Positions 35,542 to 42,117 of a stretch of DNA of 64,000 bases are shown piece after piece. The stretch is taken from NCBI GenBank assembly GCA_944389025.1, contig CALXKU010000008.1, forward strand, positions 1 to 64,000. Reading direction: 5' to 3'. Position numbers and translations under genes: made by a program. How positions within the stretch are numbered: position 1 is the first letter of the stretch; each line of letters opens with the position of its first letter. Origin of the DNA: an uncultured Spirochaetaceae bacterium (GTDB taxonomy: Bacteria > Spirochaetota > Spirochaetia > Sphaerochaetales > Sphaerochaetaceae). The notes below the pieces were generated by a model, which ran no database searches, had not been told where the DNA came from, and saw nothing but the letters and a program-made list of their open reading frames with translations.

Positions 35542-37563
35542 TTAAGCGGTCTTCACATCGCTTTCCTTCTTTTTCATTCCATATTCGTACACGGCTACGA
35601 GTACGAGGACAACAAGACCGATGAGGTCCGTAATCGTCCCTGGAATAACCATGCAGAGTCCGGCAGCTGCAAGAATGATTCTTACGAACGGGTTGAGGTC
35701 TCGTCCAAGGTATCCGTTGAGTGCTGCTGCGATTCCGAATATTCCAAGAAGTGCGGTGATACAGATTTGGACAATCTCAAACACGCTCTGCACGTTAACA
35801 AAGAGCATTGCAGGATTAAGGGCGAAAACGTACGGAACGACGAATGCTGCGATTGCCAGCTTTGTGGCGACAAGGCCTGTCTTCATCGGATCGGACTTGG
35901 CAATAGCTGAACCTGCATATGCGGCAAGAGCGACCGGTGGTGTGATATCGGCAACTATTCCGAAATAGAACACGAAGAAGTGTGCTGCAACAGTCTCGAC
36001 GTTAAGTGCGATGAGAATCGGTGCACATACTCCTGCCATGATACAGTAGTTGGCAGTGGTTGGCACTCCCATTCCGAGCACGATGCAGCAGAGCATCGTA
36101 AGAAGAAGGGCTATCATGACGATTCCGTGTGAGAGCGATACGATGGTTCCAAGAAGGATGGATGCCAGTCCAGTTACCGTGATGCATCCGGAGATTATAC
36201 CTGCGATTCCGCATGCGACTACGACCGTGATCGAGCTTCTTGCTCCGTTCTCGAACGCATCGAGTATCCATCTGAATGAGAGGCTCGGTTTCTCACCTTC
36301 CTCCTCCTCTTCTTTTCCATCTTTTGACAGTCCGATATGAGGGATTATCTTATGGATGACTCCGACAATCATCGCAACGAGGATGGAAAGTGTTGCGGAG
36401 TAGGCCATCGTATAGGTGTTGGAACCGACGAGGTAGATCAGAGCGATGAGAGGCAGAAGCAGATAGAGTTCTTTCAGAAGTTCCTTCGGCTTTGGAAGAT
36501 CTTCCTTAGGAATTCCGCTCATGCCCATTTTCTTAGCTTCAAGGTGTACCGCAATGAATATTCCCGTGAAATAGAGGACAGCTGGAAGAATCGCCATGAC
36601 AGCGATGCGTCCGTACGGAACACCCGTGAATTCGGCCATGAGGAATGCGGCAGCCCCCATGATGGGTGGCATGATCTGTCCACCTGTTGAGGCTGCAGCC
36701 TCGACCGCTGCTGCGAACTCAGGGCGGTATCCCATCTTCTTCATCATCGGAATCGTGATGGAGCCGGAACCTACAGTATTGGCAACAGAGGATCCTGAAG
36801 CCATGCCCTCAAGGGCTGATGCGACAACTGCAACCTTCGCCGGTCCACCTGTAAAGCGTCCTACAGCCGCGTTGGCAAAGCGGATGAAGAAATCGGCTAC
36901 TCCTGTACGCTCAAGGAAGGCTCCGAAGATGATGAAAATTACTATGTATTTCACACATACTCCGACTGGAGTGGAGAAGATTCCGTTTGCTGTGTAGAAG
37001 AGTGTCCTTATGAGCTGAGGCAGTGAGATTCCACTTACCAGTGTGTAGATTACGAGCACACCGGCAACGCAGAGGATCGGAAGTCCGACACAGCGTCTGC
37101 AGAGCTCAACAAGAGCGAGTATACCGATTGCACCTACAATCATGAACATCGGATTCGCCATGATTCTCGCAGAGAGCCTGATAACAGTCATTGAGTTGAT
37201 AGCATAGAAGAAATACGCACCTGAGCCGACAATCATGATTATGATATCGTACCATGGCATGTGATTAACTCTTTCATAACCTTTCTTCACGGGGAATGTT
37301 AAAAAGCCTAGGAAGATTATCATACCCATGAAAACCGAGTAACGTACCTCCTGAAGAGTGGTGAGAAAGATCGCATCAATGATGCAGTAGATTGCGAAAG
37401 CGGCCATGATGTAATGAATGACCTTTTTAGGCAGGCCTTCCCAGATCCTGACATTGGACTCCCTGTCATATTTCTTCATTACCGCTTCTACATCAGCCAT
37501 CGTTCCGACAGAATCGTCGTGATGGTGAAGATGAAAGTGTTTTTCCTTTGTCTTATCTTTCAA
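35542..37563 (-). CDS. TRAP transporter fused permease (second system)
   Basis: The 673-residue permease has the 4TM plus 12TM fused layout. The DctM core has GGPAKVAVVASALEGMASGSSVANTVGSG and STGGQIMPPIMGAAAFLMAE. The N-terminus is hydrophilic and histidine-rich (KEKHFHLHHHDD). The start is TTG 37563, preceded by AAGGAG. It differs from the first system enough to be an old paralogue. It partners with the TAXI protein upstream. Confidence 0.85.
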   Translation of the reverse strand: MKDKTKEKHFHLHHHDDSVGTMADVEAVMKKYDRESNVRIWEGLPKKVIHYIMAAFAIYCIIDAIFLTTLQEVRYSVFMGMIIFLGFLTFPVKKGYERVNHMPWYDIIIMIVGSGAYFFYAINSMTVIRLSARIMANPMFMIVGAIGILALVELCRRCVGLPILCVAGVLVIYTLVSGISLPQLIRTLFYTANGIFSTPVGVCVKYIVIFIIFGAFLERTGVADFFIRFANAAVGRFTGGPAKVAVVASALEGMASGSSVANTVGSGSITIPMMKKMGYRPEFAAAVEAAASTGGQIMPPIMGAAAFLMAEFTGVPYGRIAVMAILPAVLYFTGIFIAVHLEAKKMGMSGIPKEDLPKPKELLKELYLLLPLIALIYLVGSNTYTMAYSATLSILVAMIVGVIHKIIPHIGLSKDGKEEEEEGEKPSLSFRWILDAFENGARSSITVVVACGIAGIISGCITVTGLASILLGTIVSLSHGIVMIALLLTMLCCIVLGMGVPTTANYCIMAGVCAPILIALNVETVAAHFFVFYFGIVADITPPVALAAYAGSAIAKSDPMKTGLVATKLAIAAFVVPYVFALNPAMLFVNVQSVFEIVQICITALLGIFGIAAALNGYLGRDLNPFVRIILAAAGLCMVIPGTITDLIGLVVLVLVAVYEYGMKKKESDVKTA

Positions 37564-37630: not shown

Positions 37631-38590
37631 TTATTTTGTTGGAACCTCGATTCCCTGTTCAGCGAAATACTTCGCAGAGCCCGGATGATATGGGACTGTC
37701 GTAATCGATGTTGCGAATGCGAGGTCGAGCTCTCTACCTTTGTCATGGCTCTGAGATATCGCATCCTTATCATTGAAGATTGTAGATACGACATCATAAA
37801 CCGCATCCTCTGAGACATCGTCACGTGCGATTACAACAGCACCAACTGCTACTGTCTGGCAATCCTCAGGTGTTCCGTATACATCCGCTTTGATCGTATA
37901 GGGGCTGTAGTAAGGGGATGATGAGAGGAGAGTGTCAAGGTGCTCCTGGTCAATTGATACGAGATATACCTGGTGTGTCGTTGCAAGTGTTGAGACAGCT
38001 ACTGTAGGAGCTCCTGCAACTACGAATGCTGCATCAATCTTTCCATCCTGAAGGGCATCGACGCTGTCTCCGAAACTCTGATATGTCGGCTTGATATCGC
38101 TTTCCGTTATGCCGTACGCTCCAAGGATGTCGAGTGCGTTGTAATATACTCCGGATCCTGATGAGCCGATTGATACAGTCTTACCTTTGAGATCGGCAAC
38201 TGTCTTGATATTAGGATCGAGCGTTACGATCTGGACCTGCTCCATATAAAGGGCTGCAACCGTTGAGAAATCGGAAATTGCTCCGGTCTCCGCGAAGAGG
38301 TTCGTACCGTTATATGCATAGCTCATGACGTCCGTCTGTACGAAGCCGAGCTGATAGCTTCCCATATCCATCATCTCGATGTTGTCCTGGCTACCTGCAC
38401 TTACAACCGCTACTACGGAAGTGTCTGTCTCAGAAGAGATTCTCTGGGCAATCACGTTTCCGAATCCGTAATATGTTCCCTGATCTCCTCCGGTTCCGAA
38501 GCGCAGGGAACCTGAATCGCTTCCACCCTGAGCCATGAGCGGCATGAGAGCAAGGGCGACAAGAGCGATGATAGCAATTAATTTTTTCAT
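37631..38590 (-). CDS. TAXI family TRAP transporter solute-binding protein (second system)
   Basis: The 319-residue protein starts at ATG 38590 after GAGGAGG. It has a signal peptide of about 20 residues (MKKLIAIIALVALALMPLMA) without a lipobox cysteine. TAXI hallmarks are LRFGTGGDQGTYYGFGNVIA, QDNIEMMDMGSYQLGFVQTD and VSIGSSGSGVYYNALDIL. Related proteins bind glutamate, other small carboxylates or unknown ligands. No metabolic genes adjoin, so the ligand cannot be inferred. Confidence 0.85.
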   Translation of the reverse strand: MKKLIAIIALVALALMPLMAQGGSDSGSLRFGTGGDQGTYYGFGNVIAQRISSETDTSVVAVVSAGSQDNIEMMDMGSYQLGFVQTDVMSYAYNGTNLFAETGAISDFSTVAALYMEQVQIVTLDPNIKTVADLKGKTVSIGSSGSGVYYNALDILGAYGITESDIKPTYQSFGDSVDALQDGKIDAAFVVAGAPTVAVSTLATTHQVYLVSIDQEHLDTLLSSSPYYSPYTIKADVYGTPEDCQTVAVGAVVIARDDVSEDAVYDVVSTIFNDKDAISQSHDKGRELDLAFATSITTVPYHPGSAKYFAEQGIEVPTK

Positions 38591-38841: not shown

Positions 38842-39240
38842 ATGCGGATTTTAGTGATAGATGCCCAGGGCGGCGGGTTAGGTAAGGCGGTCATAACGGC
38901 ACTCAGGCAAAGGGATTGCAATGCTCATATCGTAGCGGTTGGAACTAACTCCAATGCGACGAGTGCGATGCTTAAAGCCGGTGCTGCTGAGGCGGCAACA
39001 GGAGAAAACTCCATTATTGTCACAGCCAGGAAGGCCGATGTCATCATCTGCCCGATCGGCCTTGTGATCGCGGATAGTATGCTCGGTGAGGTGACAGAGG
39101 GGATGGCACTTGCAATAGCAAGAAGTGATGCGAAAAAGATCCTGATTCCTTCCAAGGGCTGCAACAACTATGTCGCAGGGGTGAAGAAGATCGGTCTTAA
39201 AGAGATTATCGACGACGTTGTTGAGTGCGCCCTTTGCTAA
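38842..39240 (+). CDS. DUF3842 family protein
   Basis: The 132-residue protein fits DUF3842: MRILVIDAQGGGLGKAVITAL at the N-terminus (a Rossmann-like glycine loop), VAVGTNSNATSAMLKAGA, VIICPIGLVIADSMLGE and IPSKGCNNYVAG. Function is unknown. It directly precedes the ECF operon leader, and the ECF promoter overlaps its last codons. Linkage to a vitamin-type transporter may be a hint to its role. Confidence 0.75.
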   Translation: MRILVIDAQGGGLGKAVITALRQRDCNAHIVAVGTNSNATSAMLKAGAAEAATGENSIIVTARKADVIICPIGLVIADSMLGEVTEGMALAIARSDAKKILIPSKGCNNYVAGVKKIGLKEIIDDVVECALC

Positions 39241-39261
39241 GAGATATTTTTCTGCTATCTT
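39234..39261 (+). promoter_or_regulatory. Probable promoter of the ECF operon
   Basis: TTGCTA (39234-39239), 16 bases, TATCTT (39256-39261). The predicted start near 39268 would give a leader of about 100 bases holding the structured RNA. Confidence 0.45.
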
Positions 39262-39275
39262 AATTCTGACGTCAT

Positions 39276-39366
39276 GAAGACGGCATATTGCCATGAATGG
39301 CAGAAAACAGATGCCACATAGGGACCGTTTTAAGCGGTCATCTTCCGCAGAAGCGGAGGAGAGGGG
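39276..39366 (+). ncRNA. Riboswitch-like structured leader of the ECF transporter operon
   Basis: A three-way junction can be drawn. P1 is GAAGA 39276-39280 with TCTTC 39341-39345. P2 is GGCAT 39282-39286 with ATGCC 39311-39315, enclosing a hairpin TGCCA-TGAA-TGGCA (39289-39302). P3 is GACCG-N7-CGGTC (39323-39339). The 3' strand of P1 also belongs to a 7-bp hairpin, CTTCCGC-AGAA-GCGGAGG (39342-39359), which covers the GGAGG ribosome site before CTG 39372. The two structures exclude each other, the usual logic of a translational riboswitch. No known class motif (TPP, cobalamin, preQ1, THF) was recognised. Confidence 0.6.
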
Positions 39367-39371
39367 ATTTC

Positions 39372-40139
39372 CTGTTAATCGAATGTGAGAATCTTTCCTT
39401 CTCATATGATGGAAAGAGGGATGCGATAAGTGATATTTCACTTACCCTTGAAAAGGGTGAGTATCTATCTCTGCTTGGAGCTAACGGCTCCGGTAAGAGC
39501 ACTTTGCTTAAAGTTCTTGATCTCATCCTTCCGTATAGCCGCGGGAGGCTTAGCATACTCGGCATGGATGCCCGTGATAAGAATGCCAGAAAGATAATAA
39601 GGCGGAATATCGGATTTGTCTTTCAGAATCCAGAGGCGGCATTCATTTCAAGAACTGTGCTAGATGAGGTGATGTTCTCTCCCCTCAATTTTGGCTTTTC
39701 AAAAGATGAGGCAAGGGCAATGGCCCTATCTGCGCTTTCCGAATTCGGCCTAGACGGATACGATAATGCTCTTCTTAAAGAACTTTCCGGAGGAGAGAAG
39801 CAGCGCCTTATGCTCGCTTCAGTGTTCGTAATGGAGAGCGAGATCATAATACTCGATGAGGCTTTCTCCTTCCTTGACATGCCATCAAAAGCCCTGCTTA
39901 CCTCGGCTATCGGGAAGAGAAAAAGAAAAGGGGCGGGGATAATAAGTGTCACTCATGATGCTGAGGTGGCATCATCATCGGACAGACTGGTACTTCTTGA
40001 GAATGGAAGAGTCCGAGCTGAAGGCCGGAGTGAGGAACTGCTTAAGGATGTTGAGCTTCTAATATCATCTGATATAAGAGCTAGGGATGAGGACCTTTTC
40101 AATTATGTTATGAGTGGAGGCTCCTATGATTTCTCTTGA
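39372..40139 (+). CDS. ecfA: ECF transporter ATPase (EcfA-type, first subunit)
   Basis: The 255-residue ABC ATPase has Walker A GANGSGKSTLLK (about 37), signature ELSGGEKQRLMLAS, Walker B IIILDEAFSFLD and switch histidine VTHDAE. The family normally begins MIxxxNLxFSY; here LLIECENLSFSYDG follows GGAGAGGGG directly, so CTG 39372 is the probable start codon. An ATG at 39297 would place 25 residues inside the leader structure and is less likely. It energises uptake with the next three genes. Confidence 0.8.
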   Translation: MLIECENLSFSYDGKRDAISDISLTLEKGEYLSLLGANGSGKSTLLKVLDLILPYSRGRLSILGMDARDKNARKIIRRNIGFVFQNPEAAFISRTVLDEVMFSPLNFGFSKDEARAMALSALSEFGLDGYDNALLKELSGGEKQRLMLASVFVMESEIIILDEAFSFLDMPSKALLTSAIGKRKRKGAGIISVTHDAEVASSSDRLVLLENGRVRAEGRSEELLKDVELLISSDIRARDEDLFNYVMSGGSYDFS

Positions 40140-40854
40140 TTGCGTCACACTTGAAAGGAGGCATTTCTCTTTCGGCCCTGTCTCAAGGACATTTAAAGAG
40201 GGGGAATGCGTAGCAATCATGGGGGAGAACGGGGCGGGAAAGACAACACTGCTTGATCTCATCTCGAGGCTTGAAACACCATCTTCAGGGACTGTCGATT
40301 CATCTTCCAAGGTATCTTACGCACCGCAGGAGAGTGATGATTCATTCTTCCTTCCGACCGTTCTTGATGAGTTCTCCTATTCTCTCCGTTGCGTTAGGAG
40401 AGGCCTCGGCGTAAGGGAGGAGGCAGAGAGACTGCTGGTAGCAGTTGGCCTTGACTCTTCATATTTAAGCCAATCTCCATTTTCTCTCTCAGGAGGGGAG
40501 AAAAGACTTCTATCCATAGCACTTGCTCTCGCTATGAGCCCCGATATCATATTACTTGATGAGAGCCTTTCTGGACTGGACTGGAAGGGTTACAGAGCGT
40601 TCAGGGCTTTAGTTTCCAGCCTTAAGAACAGTGGTATCGGAATTATTTTCATCAGCCATGATCCGTCAATCCTTGATCTTGCCGATGCTCTTATCGTTCT
40701 CAAGGATGGGAAAATCGTATTCGATGGGAATCCAGTGACCGCAATGGAAGATGGCCTTATTAAGAAGAGTTTCGCCTATTCAAAATCAATGGAGCTTCTT
40801 GGCACTCCGGTACTCTCTCTGAAGGAAATTATTAGGAGGGTGGAAAATGAATAG
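40126..40854 (+). CDS. ECF transporter ATPase (EcfA'-type, second subunit)
   Basis: The 242-residue ABC ATPase starts at ATG 40126 after GGAGG and overlaps the first ATPase by 14 bases. Walker A is GENGAGKTTLLD, signature SLSGGEKRLLSIA, Walker B IILLDESLSGLD and switch ISHDPS. It is divergent from the first subunit and forms the heterodimer. Confidence 0.85.
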   Translation: MISLDCVTLERRHFSFGPVSRTFKEGECVAIMGENGAGKTTLLDLISRLETPSSGTVDSSSKVSYAPQESDDSFFLPTVLDEFSYSLRCVRRGLGVREEAERLLVAVGLDSSYLSQSPFSLSGGEKRLLSIALALAMSPDIILLDESLSGLDWKGYRAFRALVSSLKNSGIGIIFISHDPSILDLADALIVLKDGKIVFDGNPVTAMEDGLIKKSFAYSKSMELLGTPVLSLKEIIRRVENE

Positions 40855-41590
40855 GTTAAGTCCGTTCTGCCGTCTTATTTTCTTTATATTGCTGATGTCC
40901 TCTGCAATATTATCAGAAATGGTTTCTTCCATTCTTCCGGCTCTTTTCTTTGTGTCTCTTGTCGCACTTTCTTCGGGGTGCCGCCTCAAGGACCTGATTC
41001 AGCCGGTTTTCAAGCTCAGATATTTTCTCCTCTTTGTCTTCCTACTTAACGCGCTATTCTCGGATGAGGGGACTCTTTTTTCCCTCTTATTCATCAGGGT
41101 CTCGAAAGTTGGAATCATAAGGGCTTTTCTCATAGTTTACAGAGTTTCTATTGTGACGCTCATTGCTTATCTTTACACTTCATGCTCTGATATCAGCGAG
41201 ATAAATGATAGCCTTTACATACTCCTATCCCCCCTGAAACTCATATTCATTCCTGTTGATACACTCTCATCATCGCTTTCGATCGCACTTTCCATGATTG
41301 ACGGTCTCATGTATGAGAGCGAAAGGCTTAAGAAGGTGAGAAAGCTCAGAAGGCTTGGGACTCCCGAAGGTCTGAGAGAGAAAATACTGGATTACAAGGC
41401 AATCGTTATCCCTATATTCCTCATTGCTTTCAAAAGGGCTGATGAACTCTCATTCGCATTGGAATCACGTGGCTATAGTACGAAGATGAAAGTGAAGTGG
41501 GAGTATCTGAAAATAGGGAAGTGGGAACTCTTTTCACTTCTTTCCGTCTTACTTTTGCTAATTATTATCGTCAGAGGAGGTACAATATGA
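40847..41590 (+). CDS. ecfT: ECF transporter T component (EcfT)
   Basis: The 247-residue membrane protein has five or six hydrophobic segments and the two short coupling motifs of EcfT near the C-terminus, seen as ESERLKKVRKLRRLG and ADELSFALESRGYS (A-x-E-x-RG). It links the ATPases to the S component. It overlaps both neighbours by four to eight bases. Confidence 0.85.
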   Translation: MNRLSPFCRLIFFILLMSSAILSEMVSSILPALFFVSLVALSSGCRLKDLIQPVFKLRYFLLFVFLLNALFSDEGTLFSLLFIRVSKVGIIRAFLIVYRVSIVTLIAYLYTSCSDISEINDSLYILLSPLKLIFIPVDTLSSSLSIALSMIDGLMYESERLKKVRKLRRLGTPEGLREKILDYKAIVIPIFLIAFKRADELSFALESRGYSTKMKVKWEYLKIGKWELFSLLSVLLLLIIIVRGGTI

Positions 41591-42117
41591 TGACGAATAT
41601 AAAGAAAACCGTTATAGCTGCCATTCTTACGGCACTTTGCGTGATTCTTCCAATGGCTTTCCATGCCATACCGAATGCGGGAATTCTCATAAGCCCGATG
41701 CATATTCCCGCCTTCATTGCAGGCCTTACCATAGGCCCTCTTTATGGCCTGATCGTAGGACTCTTAGGACCTTTTTTATCATCCATGCTTACAGGTATGC
41801 CTGCCGTATCCGTCATGCCCCAGATGATGATAGAACTTGCCTCTTATGCTTTCTTTGCCGGTCTCTTCATGCGCCTGATCAGAACTTACAACTATATGGC
41901 AGACATCTATCTCTCACTCTCTCTCAGCATGATTGCAGGACGTGCTGTTGCCGGCATATGCAGGGCTCTGATATTCTCATCCGGCTCATACTCTTTTAAC
42001 GCATGGCTTGCATCCTACTTTGTCTCAACCTGGCCGGCCATCATAGTACAGCTTGCCATAATCCCGGCCATCGTGTTCGCTCTTGAGAAGGCTAATCTGA
42101 TCGAGAAGCGGTATTAG
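41587..42117 (+). CDS. ECF transporter S component
   Basis: The 176-residue protein has six predicted helices and fits the ECF-S superfamily (PF12822 type): IAAILTALCVILPMAFHAIP, SPMHIPAFIAGLTIGPLYG and MIELASYAFFAGL. It binds the substrate. The family includes pantothenate, folate, riboflavin and queuosine-precursor carriers, and the sequence alone does not decide. The ligand of the leader RNA would probably reveal it. The start is ATG 41587, after AGGAGG. Confidence 0.8.
   Translation: MMTNIKKTVIAAILTALCVILPMAFHAIPNAGILISPMHIPAFIAGLTIGPLYGLIVGLLGPFLSSMLTGMPAVSVMPQMMIELASYAFFAGLFMRLIRTYNYMADIYLSLSLSMIAGRAVAGICRALIFSSGSYSFNAWLASYFVSTWPAIIVQLAIIPAIVFALEKANLIEKRY

What the first reader, a model, noticed from the sequence alone, without database searches (positions are those of the whole stretch)
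39268..39374. Possible orphan riboswitch controlling an ECF vitamin transporter
A compact three-way junction (39276-39345) precedes the ECF operon. The 3' strand of its closing stem is shared with a 7-bp hairpin that hides the GGAGG ribosome site. Only one of the two can form, so a ligand stabilising the junction would free translation of a CTG-initiated ATPase gene. I cannot match it to TPP, cobalamin, preQ1 or THF classes.
Basis: partly seen in the sequence, partly recalled or inferred. Interest (0 to 1): 0.75.

Follow-up and report, generated by a model that had tools for sequence, protein, structure and literature searches.

The report
New hairpin switch before vitamin importer
The stretch is a real RNA control element, made of small hairpins with the same loop letters, that sits in front of an unidentified vitamin importer in gut spirochaetes and many Clostridia, is in no RNA catalogue searched, and nearly always occurs together with one uncharacterised protein (DUF3842) that may be its partner.

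Summary
The proposed three-way junction is not supported: its closing stem has probability 0 in the full leader and does not covary. H3 covaries in the nearest relatives. The same element precedes the homologous S component in many Clostridia. There H1 lies at the promoter, and H3 is exclusive with a Rho-independent terminator in 38 of 42 leaders. A model-only scan of 291 Clostridia gave 11 new hits, all directly before this S gene. The element follows DUF3842: 32/32 element-bearing genomes have that protein, while only 4/37 S-bearing genomes without a detected element do. A blind check gave 5/5 against 0/5. ANTAR is not required (15 of 39 genomes lack it). Best reading: a tandem-hairpin antiterminator (a translational switch in the spirochaete) whose trans factor is probably DUF3842 or a ligand tied to it. 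Binding, ligand and polarity are untested.

The parts
38842..39240 (+). DUF3842 (PF12953) gene, candidate trans-acting partner; single Rossmann-type domain
   Evidence: Pfam E 2e-46; present in 32/32 element-bearing Firmicutes genomes; AF2 model pLDDT 93, Rossmann-like neighbours
39252..39261 (+). Possible extended -10 region (CTGCTATCTT) so that the transcript would begin at H1
   Evidence: Conserved in the alignment of six leaders; in 19 of 26 Firmicutes leaders a TTG...TAnnnT promoter ends 6-14 nt (once 29) before H1. No promoter was found here by the consensus scan, so this is inference
39268..39284 (+). H1: hairpin CGUC-AUGAA-GACG (core 39270-39282)
   Evidence: Best R1 hit in the 64-kb window, 17.3 bits; Firmicutes H1 set covaries, score 0.81 vs 0.21 shuffled; MFE pairing
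39288..39303 (+). H2: hairpin UUGCCA-UGAA-UGGCAG
   Evidence: One of only four >=6-bp NGAA-tetraloop hairpins on both strands of the window; counterparts in L036, L038, L039
39323..39339 (+). H2': hairpin GACCGUU-UUA-AGCGGUC
   Evidence: Seven pairs, all with compensatory changes among six leaders, 81% of cells paired
39341..39360 (+).
   Evidence: 97.6% of cells paired, four pairs with compensatory change, loop [AU]GAA closed by C-G invariant in six leaders
39360..39367 (+). Shine-Dalgarno-like AGAGGGGA next to H3
   Evidence: AGGGG or close variant kept in the six leaders
39372..40139 (+). EcfA1 ATPase gene with CTG start
   Evidence: CTG conserved in all six leaders; L040 has no in-frame ATG/GTG/TTG in its open frame upstream; best NCBIfam model is an ECF ATPase, below its equivalog cut-off
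40126..40854 (+). EcfA2 ATPase gene
40847..41590 (+). EcfT (CbiQ-like) gene
   Evidence: PF02361 E 3.5e-19
41587..42117 (+). S component (PF12822; FolT-family-like but under the TIGR04518 cut-off); substrate unknown

Best explanation
The leader is a tandem-hairpin cis-regulatory RNA. SHOWN BY SEQUENCE: (1) hairpins H1 and H3 (often with a small H2) carry C-(R)NGAA-G loops whose stems covary. (2) In Clostridia H1 starts within about 6-14 nt of the -10 box, and H3 overlaps the 5' arm of a much more stable intrinsic terminator, so H3 and the terminator exclude each other. (3) The element is specific to one family of ECF S components. (4) Its presence follows the presence of the DUF3842 protein. 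INFERRED: a trans factor recognises the H1 and H3 loops together, stabilises H3 and so prevents termination; H3 alone (median -4.4 kcal/mol) cannot compete with the terminator (median -25.3). DUF3842, a single Rossmann-type domain likely to bind a nucleotide-like ligand, is the most likely factor, perhaps binding when the imported vitamin is scarce. In the spirochaete window there is no terminator; H3 ends directly at the SD, so the same recognition would act on ribosome access to the CTG start of ecfA1. Whether binding there represses or activates is not known.
For: Covariation of H1 (50 double-change cells vs 15.8 shuffled, score 0.81 vs 0.21), of H3 in Firmicutes (42 vs 21, partly selected for 3 bp) and of H3+H2' in the window and its relatives (20 vs 6.5). 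Model R1, built only from Firmicutes leaders, has its best window hit at 39268-39304. A scan of 291 Clostridia genomes gave 11 new hits, all immediately before an S homologue. H3/terminator exclusion in 38 of 42 leaders. DUF3842 in 32/32 element-bearing genomes against 6/18 random Clostridia without a hit and 4/37 S-bearing genomes without a detected element. Hairpin in 35/52 DUF3842+ against 0/33 DUF3842- leaders, with 2/85 on the reverse strand as control, although DUF3842 presence changes about 14 times on the S tree. Blind check 5/5 vs 0/5. Genome G502 (L192) has DUF3842-element-EcfA1 in the window's own order. The kinase neighbour is kept in 12/33 DUF3842- genomes, so it is less tied to the element. 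DUF3842- S genes often carry a CCCCC-GGGGGCTT promoter site instead, 15/33 vs 0/52.
Against: No binding or expression data. DUF3842 is near neutral (median pI 6) with only four mostly conserved basic positions, and no RNA-binding fold showed up among its structural neighbours. A small-molecule aptamer fed by a DUF3842-dependent metabolite fits the same co-occurrence. On well-supported branches only 4 independent contrasts exist, too few for significance. The window's R1 score is weak (17.3 bits, E 0.22 over 831 kb), so the link to the Clostridial element rests also on gene order and loop identity. One DUF3842+ genome (G211) has no detected S gene.
Confidence: 0.5

Rival explanations
1. A true riboswitch: the tandem NGAA hairpins bind the vitamin or a derivative directly, in the style of guanidine-II, and DUF3842 belongs to the metabolism of that ligand.
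For: Controls a vitamin importer family; compact invariant loops; no Rfam class; S genes without DUF3842 may carry another substrate.
Against: Stabilising H3 would turn the importer ON, the reverse of most vitamin-sensing switches; the salvage-type kinase is kept in 12/33 DUF3842- genomes that have no element; H1-H3 distance varies widely, 11 to 114 nt, unusual for one folded aptamer.
Confidence: 0.33
2. An ANTAR-protein target: dual hairpins that an ANTAR regulator stabilises against a terminator, as with EutV.
For: Same plan: two hairpins, the second overlapping a terminator (PMC3369931); a single ANTAR gene in all 10 spirochaete genomes tested.
Against: No ANTAR domain found in 15 of 39 element-bearing Firmicutes genomes (6/14, 9/25); the loop is a pentaloop or tetraloop with GAA, not a hexaloop with A1 and G4.
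Confidence: 0.05
3. One reading: a vitamin stabilises a three-way junction (39276-39345) and so frees GGAGG.
For: The isolated fragment folds this way.
Against: P1 probability 0 in the full leader; no covariation in relatives; H1, which the junction would break, is the conserved part.
Confidence: 0.03
4. Only ordinary structure: DUF3842's 3' end plus stable stem-loops with no regulatory role in the spirochaete, a relic of the Clostridial element.
For: Weak R1 score in the window; L040 lacks H1 and H2; most relatives in the genus have shorter leaders with variant tetraloops.
Against: H3 and H2' keep covarying among the six nearest species and the loop [AU]GAA stays invariant.
Confidence: 0.09

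Closest known systems
ANTAR-target dual-hairpin RNAs (EutV/AmiR/NasR; PMC3369931)
   Same: Two hairpins with like loops, second one exclusive with an intrinsic terminator, variable spacing
   Different: Loop is (R)NGAA closed by C-G, not a hexaloop with A1 and G4; no ANTAR gene found in 15 of 39 genomes; co-occurs with DUF3842
Guanidine-II (mini-ykkC) riboswitch (PMC5486947)
   Same: Two small stem-loops of similar sequence act as one unit
   Different: Loops are not the ACGR of guanidine-II (that consensus is from memory); genes are ECF S components; no Rfam match
TwoAYGGAY motif (Rfam RF01731; name and number from memory)
   Same: Two hairpins with conserved loops, reported (from memory) also in Clostridia and spirochaetes
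   Different: Loop sequence differs; no match to it at gathering score or at E<=3
Vitamin riboswitches before ECF S genes (TPP, FMN, THF, preQ1, cobalamin)
   Same: Same type of gene controlled by a leader RNA
   Different: None matches; FMN, SAM and cobalamin elements were found elsewhere in the same loci, so the search was able to detect them
BglG/LicT or PyrR protein-dependent antitermination (from memory)
   Same: A protein selects between an RNA hairpin and a terminator
   Different: Different RNA and a different, uncharacterised protein candidate

Membership tests
Any Rfam 15 family | Score at or above the curated gathering cut-off | tested here: not met
   0 matches in the window; no match at the leaders of 29 Firmicutes loci; none at E<=3 over the leaders of 13 further loci
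ANTAR-target RNA | Hexanucleotide loops with A at position 1 and G at position 4 in both hairpins | tested here: not met
   Loop columns read C-[AG]-N-G-A-A-G, a pentaloop
ANTAR-target RNA | An ANTAR protein in the genome | tested here: not met
   Not found in 15 of 39 element-bearing Firmicutes genomes; MAG gaps could explain some of these
ANTAR-like antitermination plan (works like) | Downstream hairpin exclusive with an intrinsic terminator | tested here: met
   38 of 42 Firmicutes leaders; the window itself has no terminator
Guanidine-II riboswitch | ACGR loops in both hairpins | tested here: not met
   Loop columns and no Rfam match; the ACGR consensus itself is from memory
Riboswitch (in general) | Direct binding of a metabolite by the RNA | not testable with these tools
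   Needs in-line probing or calorimetry
FolT folate S component | TIGR04518 score at or above 60 bits | tested here: not met
   37.1 bits; nearest solved sequences are RibU and another ECF S subunit at E 0.006-0.03
DUF3842 (PF12953) | Pfam gathering score 28.5 | tested here: met
   157.9 bits
RNA-binding antiterminator (for DUF3842) | Direct, loop-dependent RNA binding | not testable with these tools
   Only co-occurrence and gene order are available

The most novel reading that the evidence does not exclude
DUF3842 founds a new family of Rossmann-fold RNA-binding regulators that read tandem (R)NGAA hairpins and set the expression of an unidentified vitamin importer by antitermination in Clostridia and by translation in spirochaetes.
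Probability: 0.38. Interest if true: 0.85.

Novelty: new variant of a known kind. Interest (0 to 1): 0.72.

Why it matters
It adds an uncatalogued cis-regulatory RNA found across gut Clostridia and spirochaetes, gives the first functional lead for a protein family of unknown function (DUF3842, no paper in the library searched), and marks an orphan vitamin importer with its own dedicated control and, often, its own kinase. Two simple experiments would decide between a new RNA-binding protein family and a new riboswitch class.

Tried and rejected
Three-way junction: rejected by pair probability and lack of covariation. NGAA loops as a general feature of terminators or of the genome: only four such tetraloop hairpins (>=6 bp) in 64 kb, two of them here. 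Known Rfam class: none. ANTAR: rejected by loop and by absence of the gene. Second sites of the element elsewhere in Firmicutes genomes: eight extra weak hits inspected (L160-L162, L164-L168) looked like chance matches, several inside coding sequence. Kinase as the partner: not found in 6 of 28 element-bearing genomes, present in 12 of 33 without the element. The first joint alignment of all leaders misplaced the GUUUC group, so R1 was built from 14 of them. The fold search placed DUF3842 among Rossmann domains; no RNA-binding neighbour appeared in the listed rows, which proves nothing. Forced-structure energies did not take effect (the constrained runs returned the free MFE), and its H3 probability row was indexed one base off; both are not used.

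Full report
WHAT WAS CHECKED. The window belongs to a genome of a spirochaete genus; the only named organism among its relatives' records is a Candidatus Ornithospirochaeta (record titles; 47 same-genus genomes). At 38842-39240 lies a DUF3842 gene; at 39372-42117 an EcfA1-EcfA2-EcfT-S operon. The 107-nt leader folds better than all but 1 of 200 shuffles and matches no Rfam family. The CTG start of ecfA1 is real as far as sequence can tell: the codon and the AGGGG-like SD before it are kept in five other species, and one of them (L040) offers no ATG, GTG or TTG in its open frame upstream.

Among the six nearest leaders P1 shows one double-change cell, no more than its slid controls, while H3 and H2' together show 20 against 6.5 in shuffles, with 89% of cells paired against 26-60% when slid. 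The shared feature is the loop: H1 AUGAA, H2 UGAA, H3 AGAA, closed in H1 and H3 by C-G.

THE SAME ELEMENT IN CLOSTRIDIA. The S component has hundreds of relatives in Clostridia. Many of their leaders hold hairpins with (A/G)NGAA pentaloops closed by C-G. A covariance model (R1) built from 14 Firmicutes leaders only was run over the fetched loci and the window: its best window hit is 39268-39304, on the finding itself, though weak (17.3 bits). Over 30 element-bearing genomes it finds essentially only the S locus. In 291 Clostridia drawn without regard to this gene it gives 11 further genomes at E<=0.001, and all 11 hits lie directly before an S homologue of 36-41% identity. That specificity is independent of how the training set was chosen.

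HOW IT IS BUILT. H1 stems covary strongly (28 sequences: 50 double-change cells against 15.8). H3 stems also do; the hairpins were picked with at least 3 bp, so the inner pairs are partly selected. In 19 of 26 leaders a recognisable promoter ends 6-14 nt (once 29) before H1, so H1 sits at the very 5' end of the transcript. H3 overlaps the 5' arm of a Rho-independent terminator in 38 of 42 leaders; median energies are -25.3 kcal/mol for the terminator and -4.4 for H3. Left alone the RNA should terminate, so something must hold H3. A few Firmicutes leaders (L099, L131) and the spirochaetes lack the terminator and have H3 close to the SD: a translational version. The order DUF3842 - element - EcfA1 of the window occurs also in a Firmicutes genome (L192).

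WHO RECOGNISES IT. ANTAR proteins were the first suspect because of the shared plan (PMC3369931), but no ANTAR gene was found in 15 of 39 element-bearing Firmicutes genomes and the loops differ. DUF3842 behaves otherwise. It is present once in each of 32 element-bearing genomes, adjacent or not, in 6 of 18 random Clostridia without a hit, and in 4 of 37 genomes that have the S gene but no detected element. Of those four, L071, L099 and the genome of L072 do carry such a hairpin on inspection, and the L078 contig is cut upstream of S. On the S tree the presence of DUF3842 changes about 14 times (at least 4 on starred branches). A strict hairpin count gives 35/52 with DUF3842 against 0/33 without, and 2/85 on the opposite strand; on starred branches there are only 4 independent contrasts, none contrary, too few for a test. 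The DUF3842+ leaders that fail the strict count are mostly spirochaetes with tetraloop variants or cut contigs. A prediction was then tested on ten S genes not looked at before: five from DUF3842+ genomes all carry the hairpin, most with an evident terminator, and five from DUF3842- genomes do not. S genes without DUF3842 often have a CCCCC-GGGGGCTT site at the promoter instead (15/33 against 0/52), as if one control regime replaces the other. The uridine-kinase-like neighbour, probably part of the substrate pathway, is kept in 12/33 DUF3842- genomes and not found in 6/28 element-bearing ones, so the element follows DUF3842 rather than the pathway.

WHAT DUF3842 MIGHT BE. Its predicted fold (pLDDT 93) is a lone Rossmann domain, nearest to dehydrogenase NAD domains at Z 8-9; no Foldseek match reached E 0.001. 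It is near neutral with four mostly conserved basic positions. So it may bind a nucleotide-like ligand; RNA binding is inferred from co-occurrence only. No paper in the library names it.

VERDICT. Shown: a conserved, gene-specific cis-regulatory RNA absent from Rfam, with a terminator-based platform in Clostridia and a tight tie to DUF3842. Inferred: antitermination by stabilising H3, DUF3842 as the factor, vitamin-dependent control, translational control in the window. Rival: a tandem-hairpin riboswitch whose ligand depends on DUF3842. Limits: many genomes are MAGs; the window's own match to the model is weak; the S substrate is unknown; novelty is judged against Rfam 15 and an open-access library only.

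Noticed in passing
L065, L069, L080, L088, L095 and ten others, 74-149 nt before the S gene or EcfA1: CCCCC-N-GGGGGCTT inverted repeat upstream of a TATAAT-like box in S genes of genomes without DUF3842 (15/33 against 0/52): a likely DNA operator for an unknown regulator.
   Followed up: partly
L096 566-1624, L105 523-1620 and others (offsets from the S start); G000:C8:81578-82063: Uridine-kinase-like P-loop kinase, often fused to a ~165-aa N-terminal domain without a significant Pfam match, next to the S gene; the own genome has the kinase 40 kb away.
   Followed up: partly
window 39372-39374: CTG start codon of ecfA1 conserved in six species of the genus.
   Followed up: partly
L096, L105, L116 about 1.7-3.4 kb after the S start: FMN and SAM riboswitches follow the S gene in some Clostridia, suggesting clusters of separately switched transport genes.
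   Followed up: no
window 37631-38590 (-) and 35542-37563 (-): TAXI-type TRAP transporter solute-binding protein (TIGR02122) next to a large membrane protein, likely its permease, on the other strand beside DUF3842.
   Followed up: no
G000:C1:130203-130349 and the nine other spirochaete genomes tested: A single ANTAR-domain gene per genome (open frames of 184-337 aa), while 14 control genomes have none.
   Followed up: no
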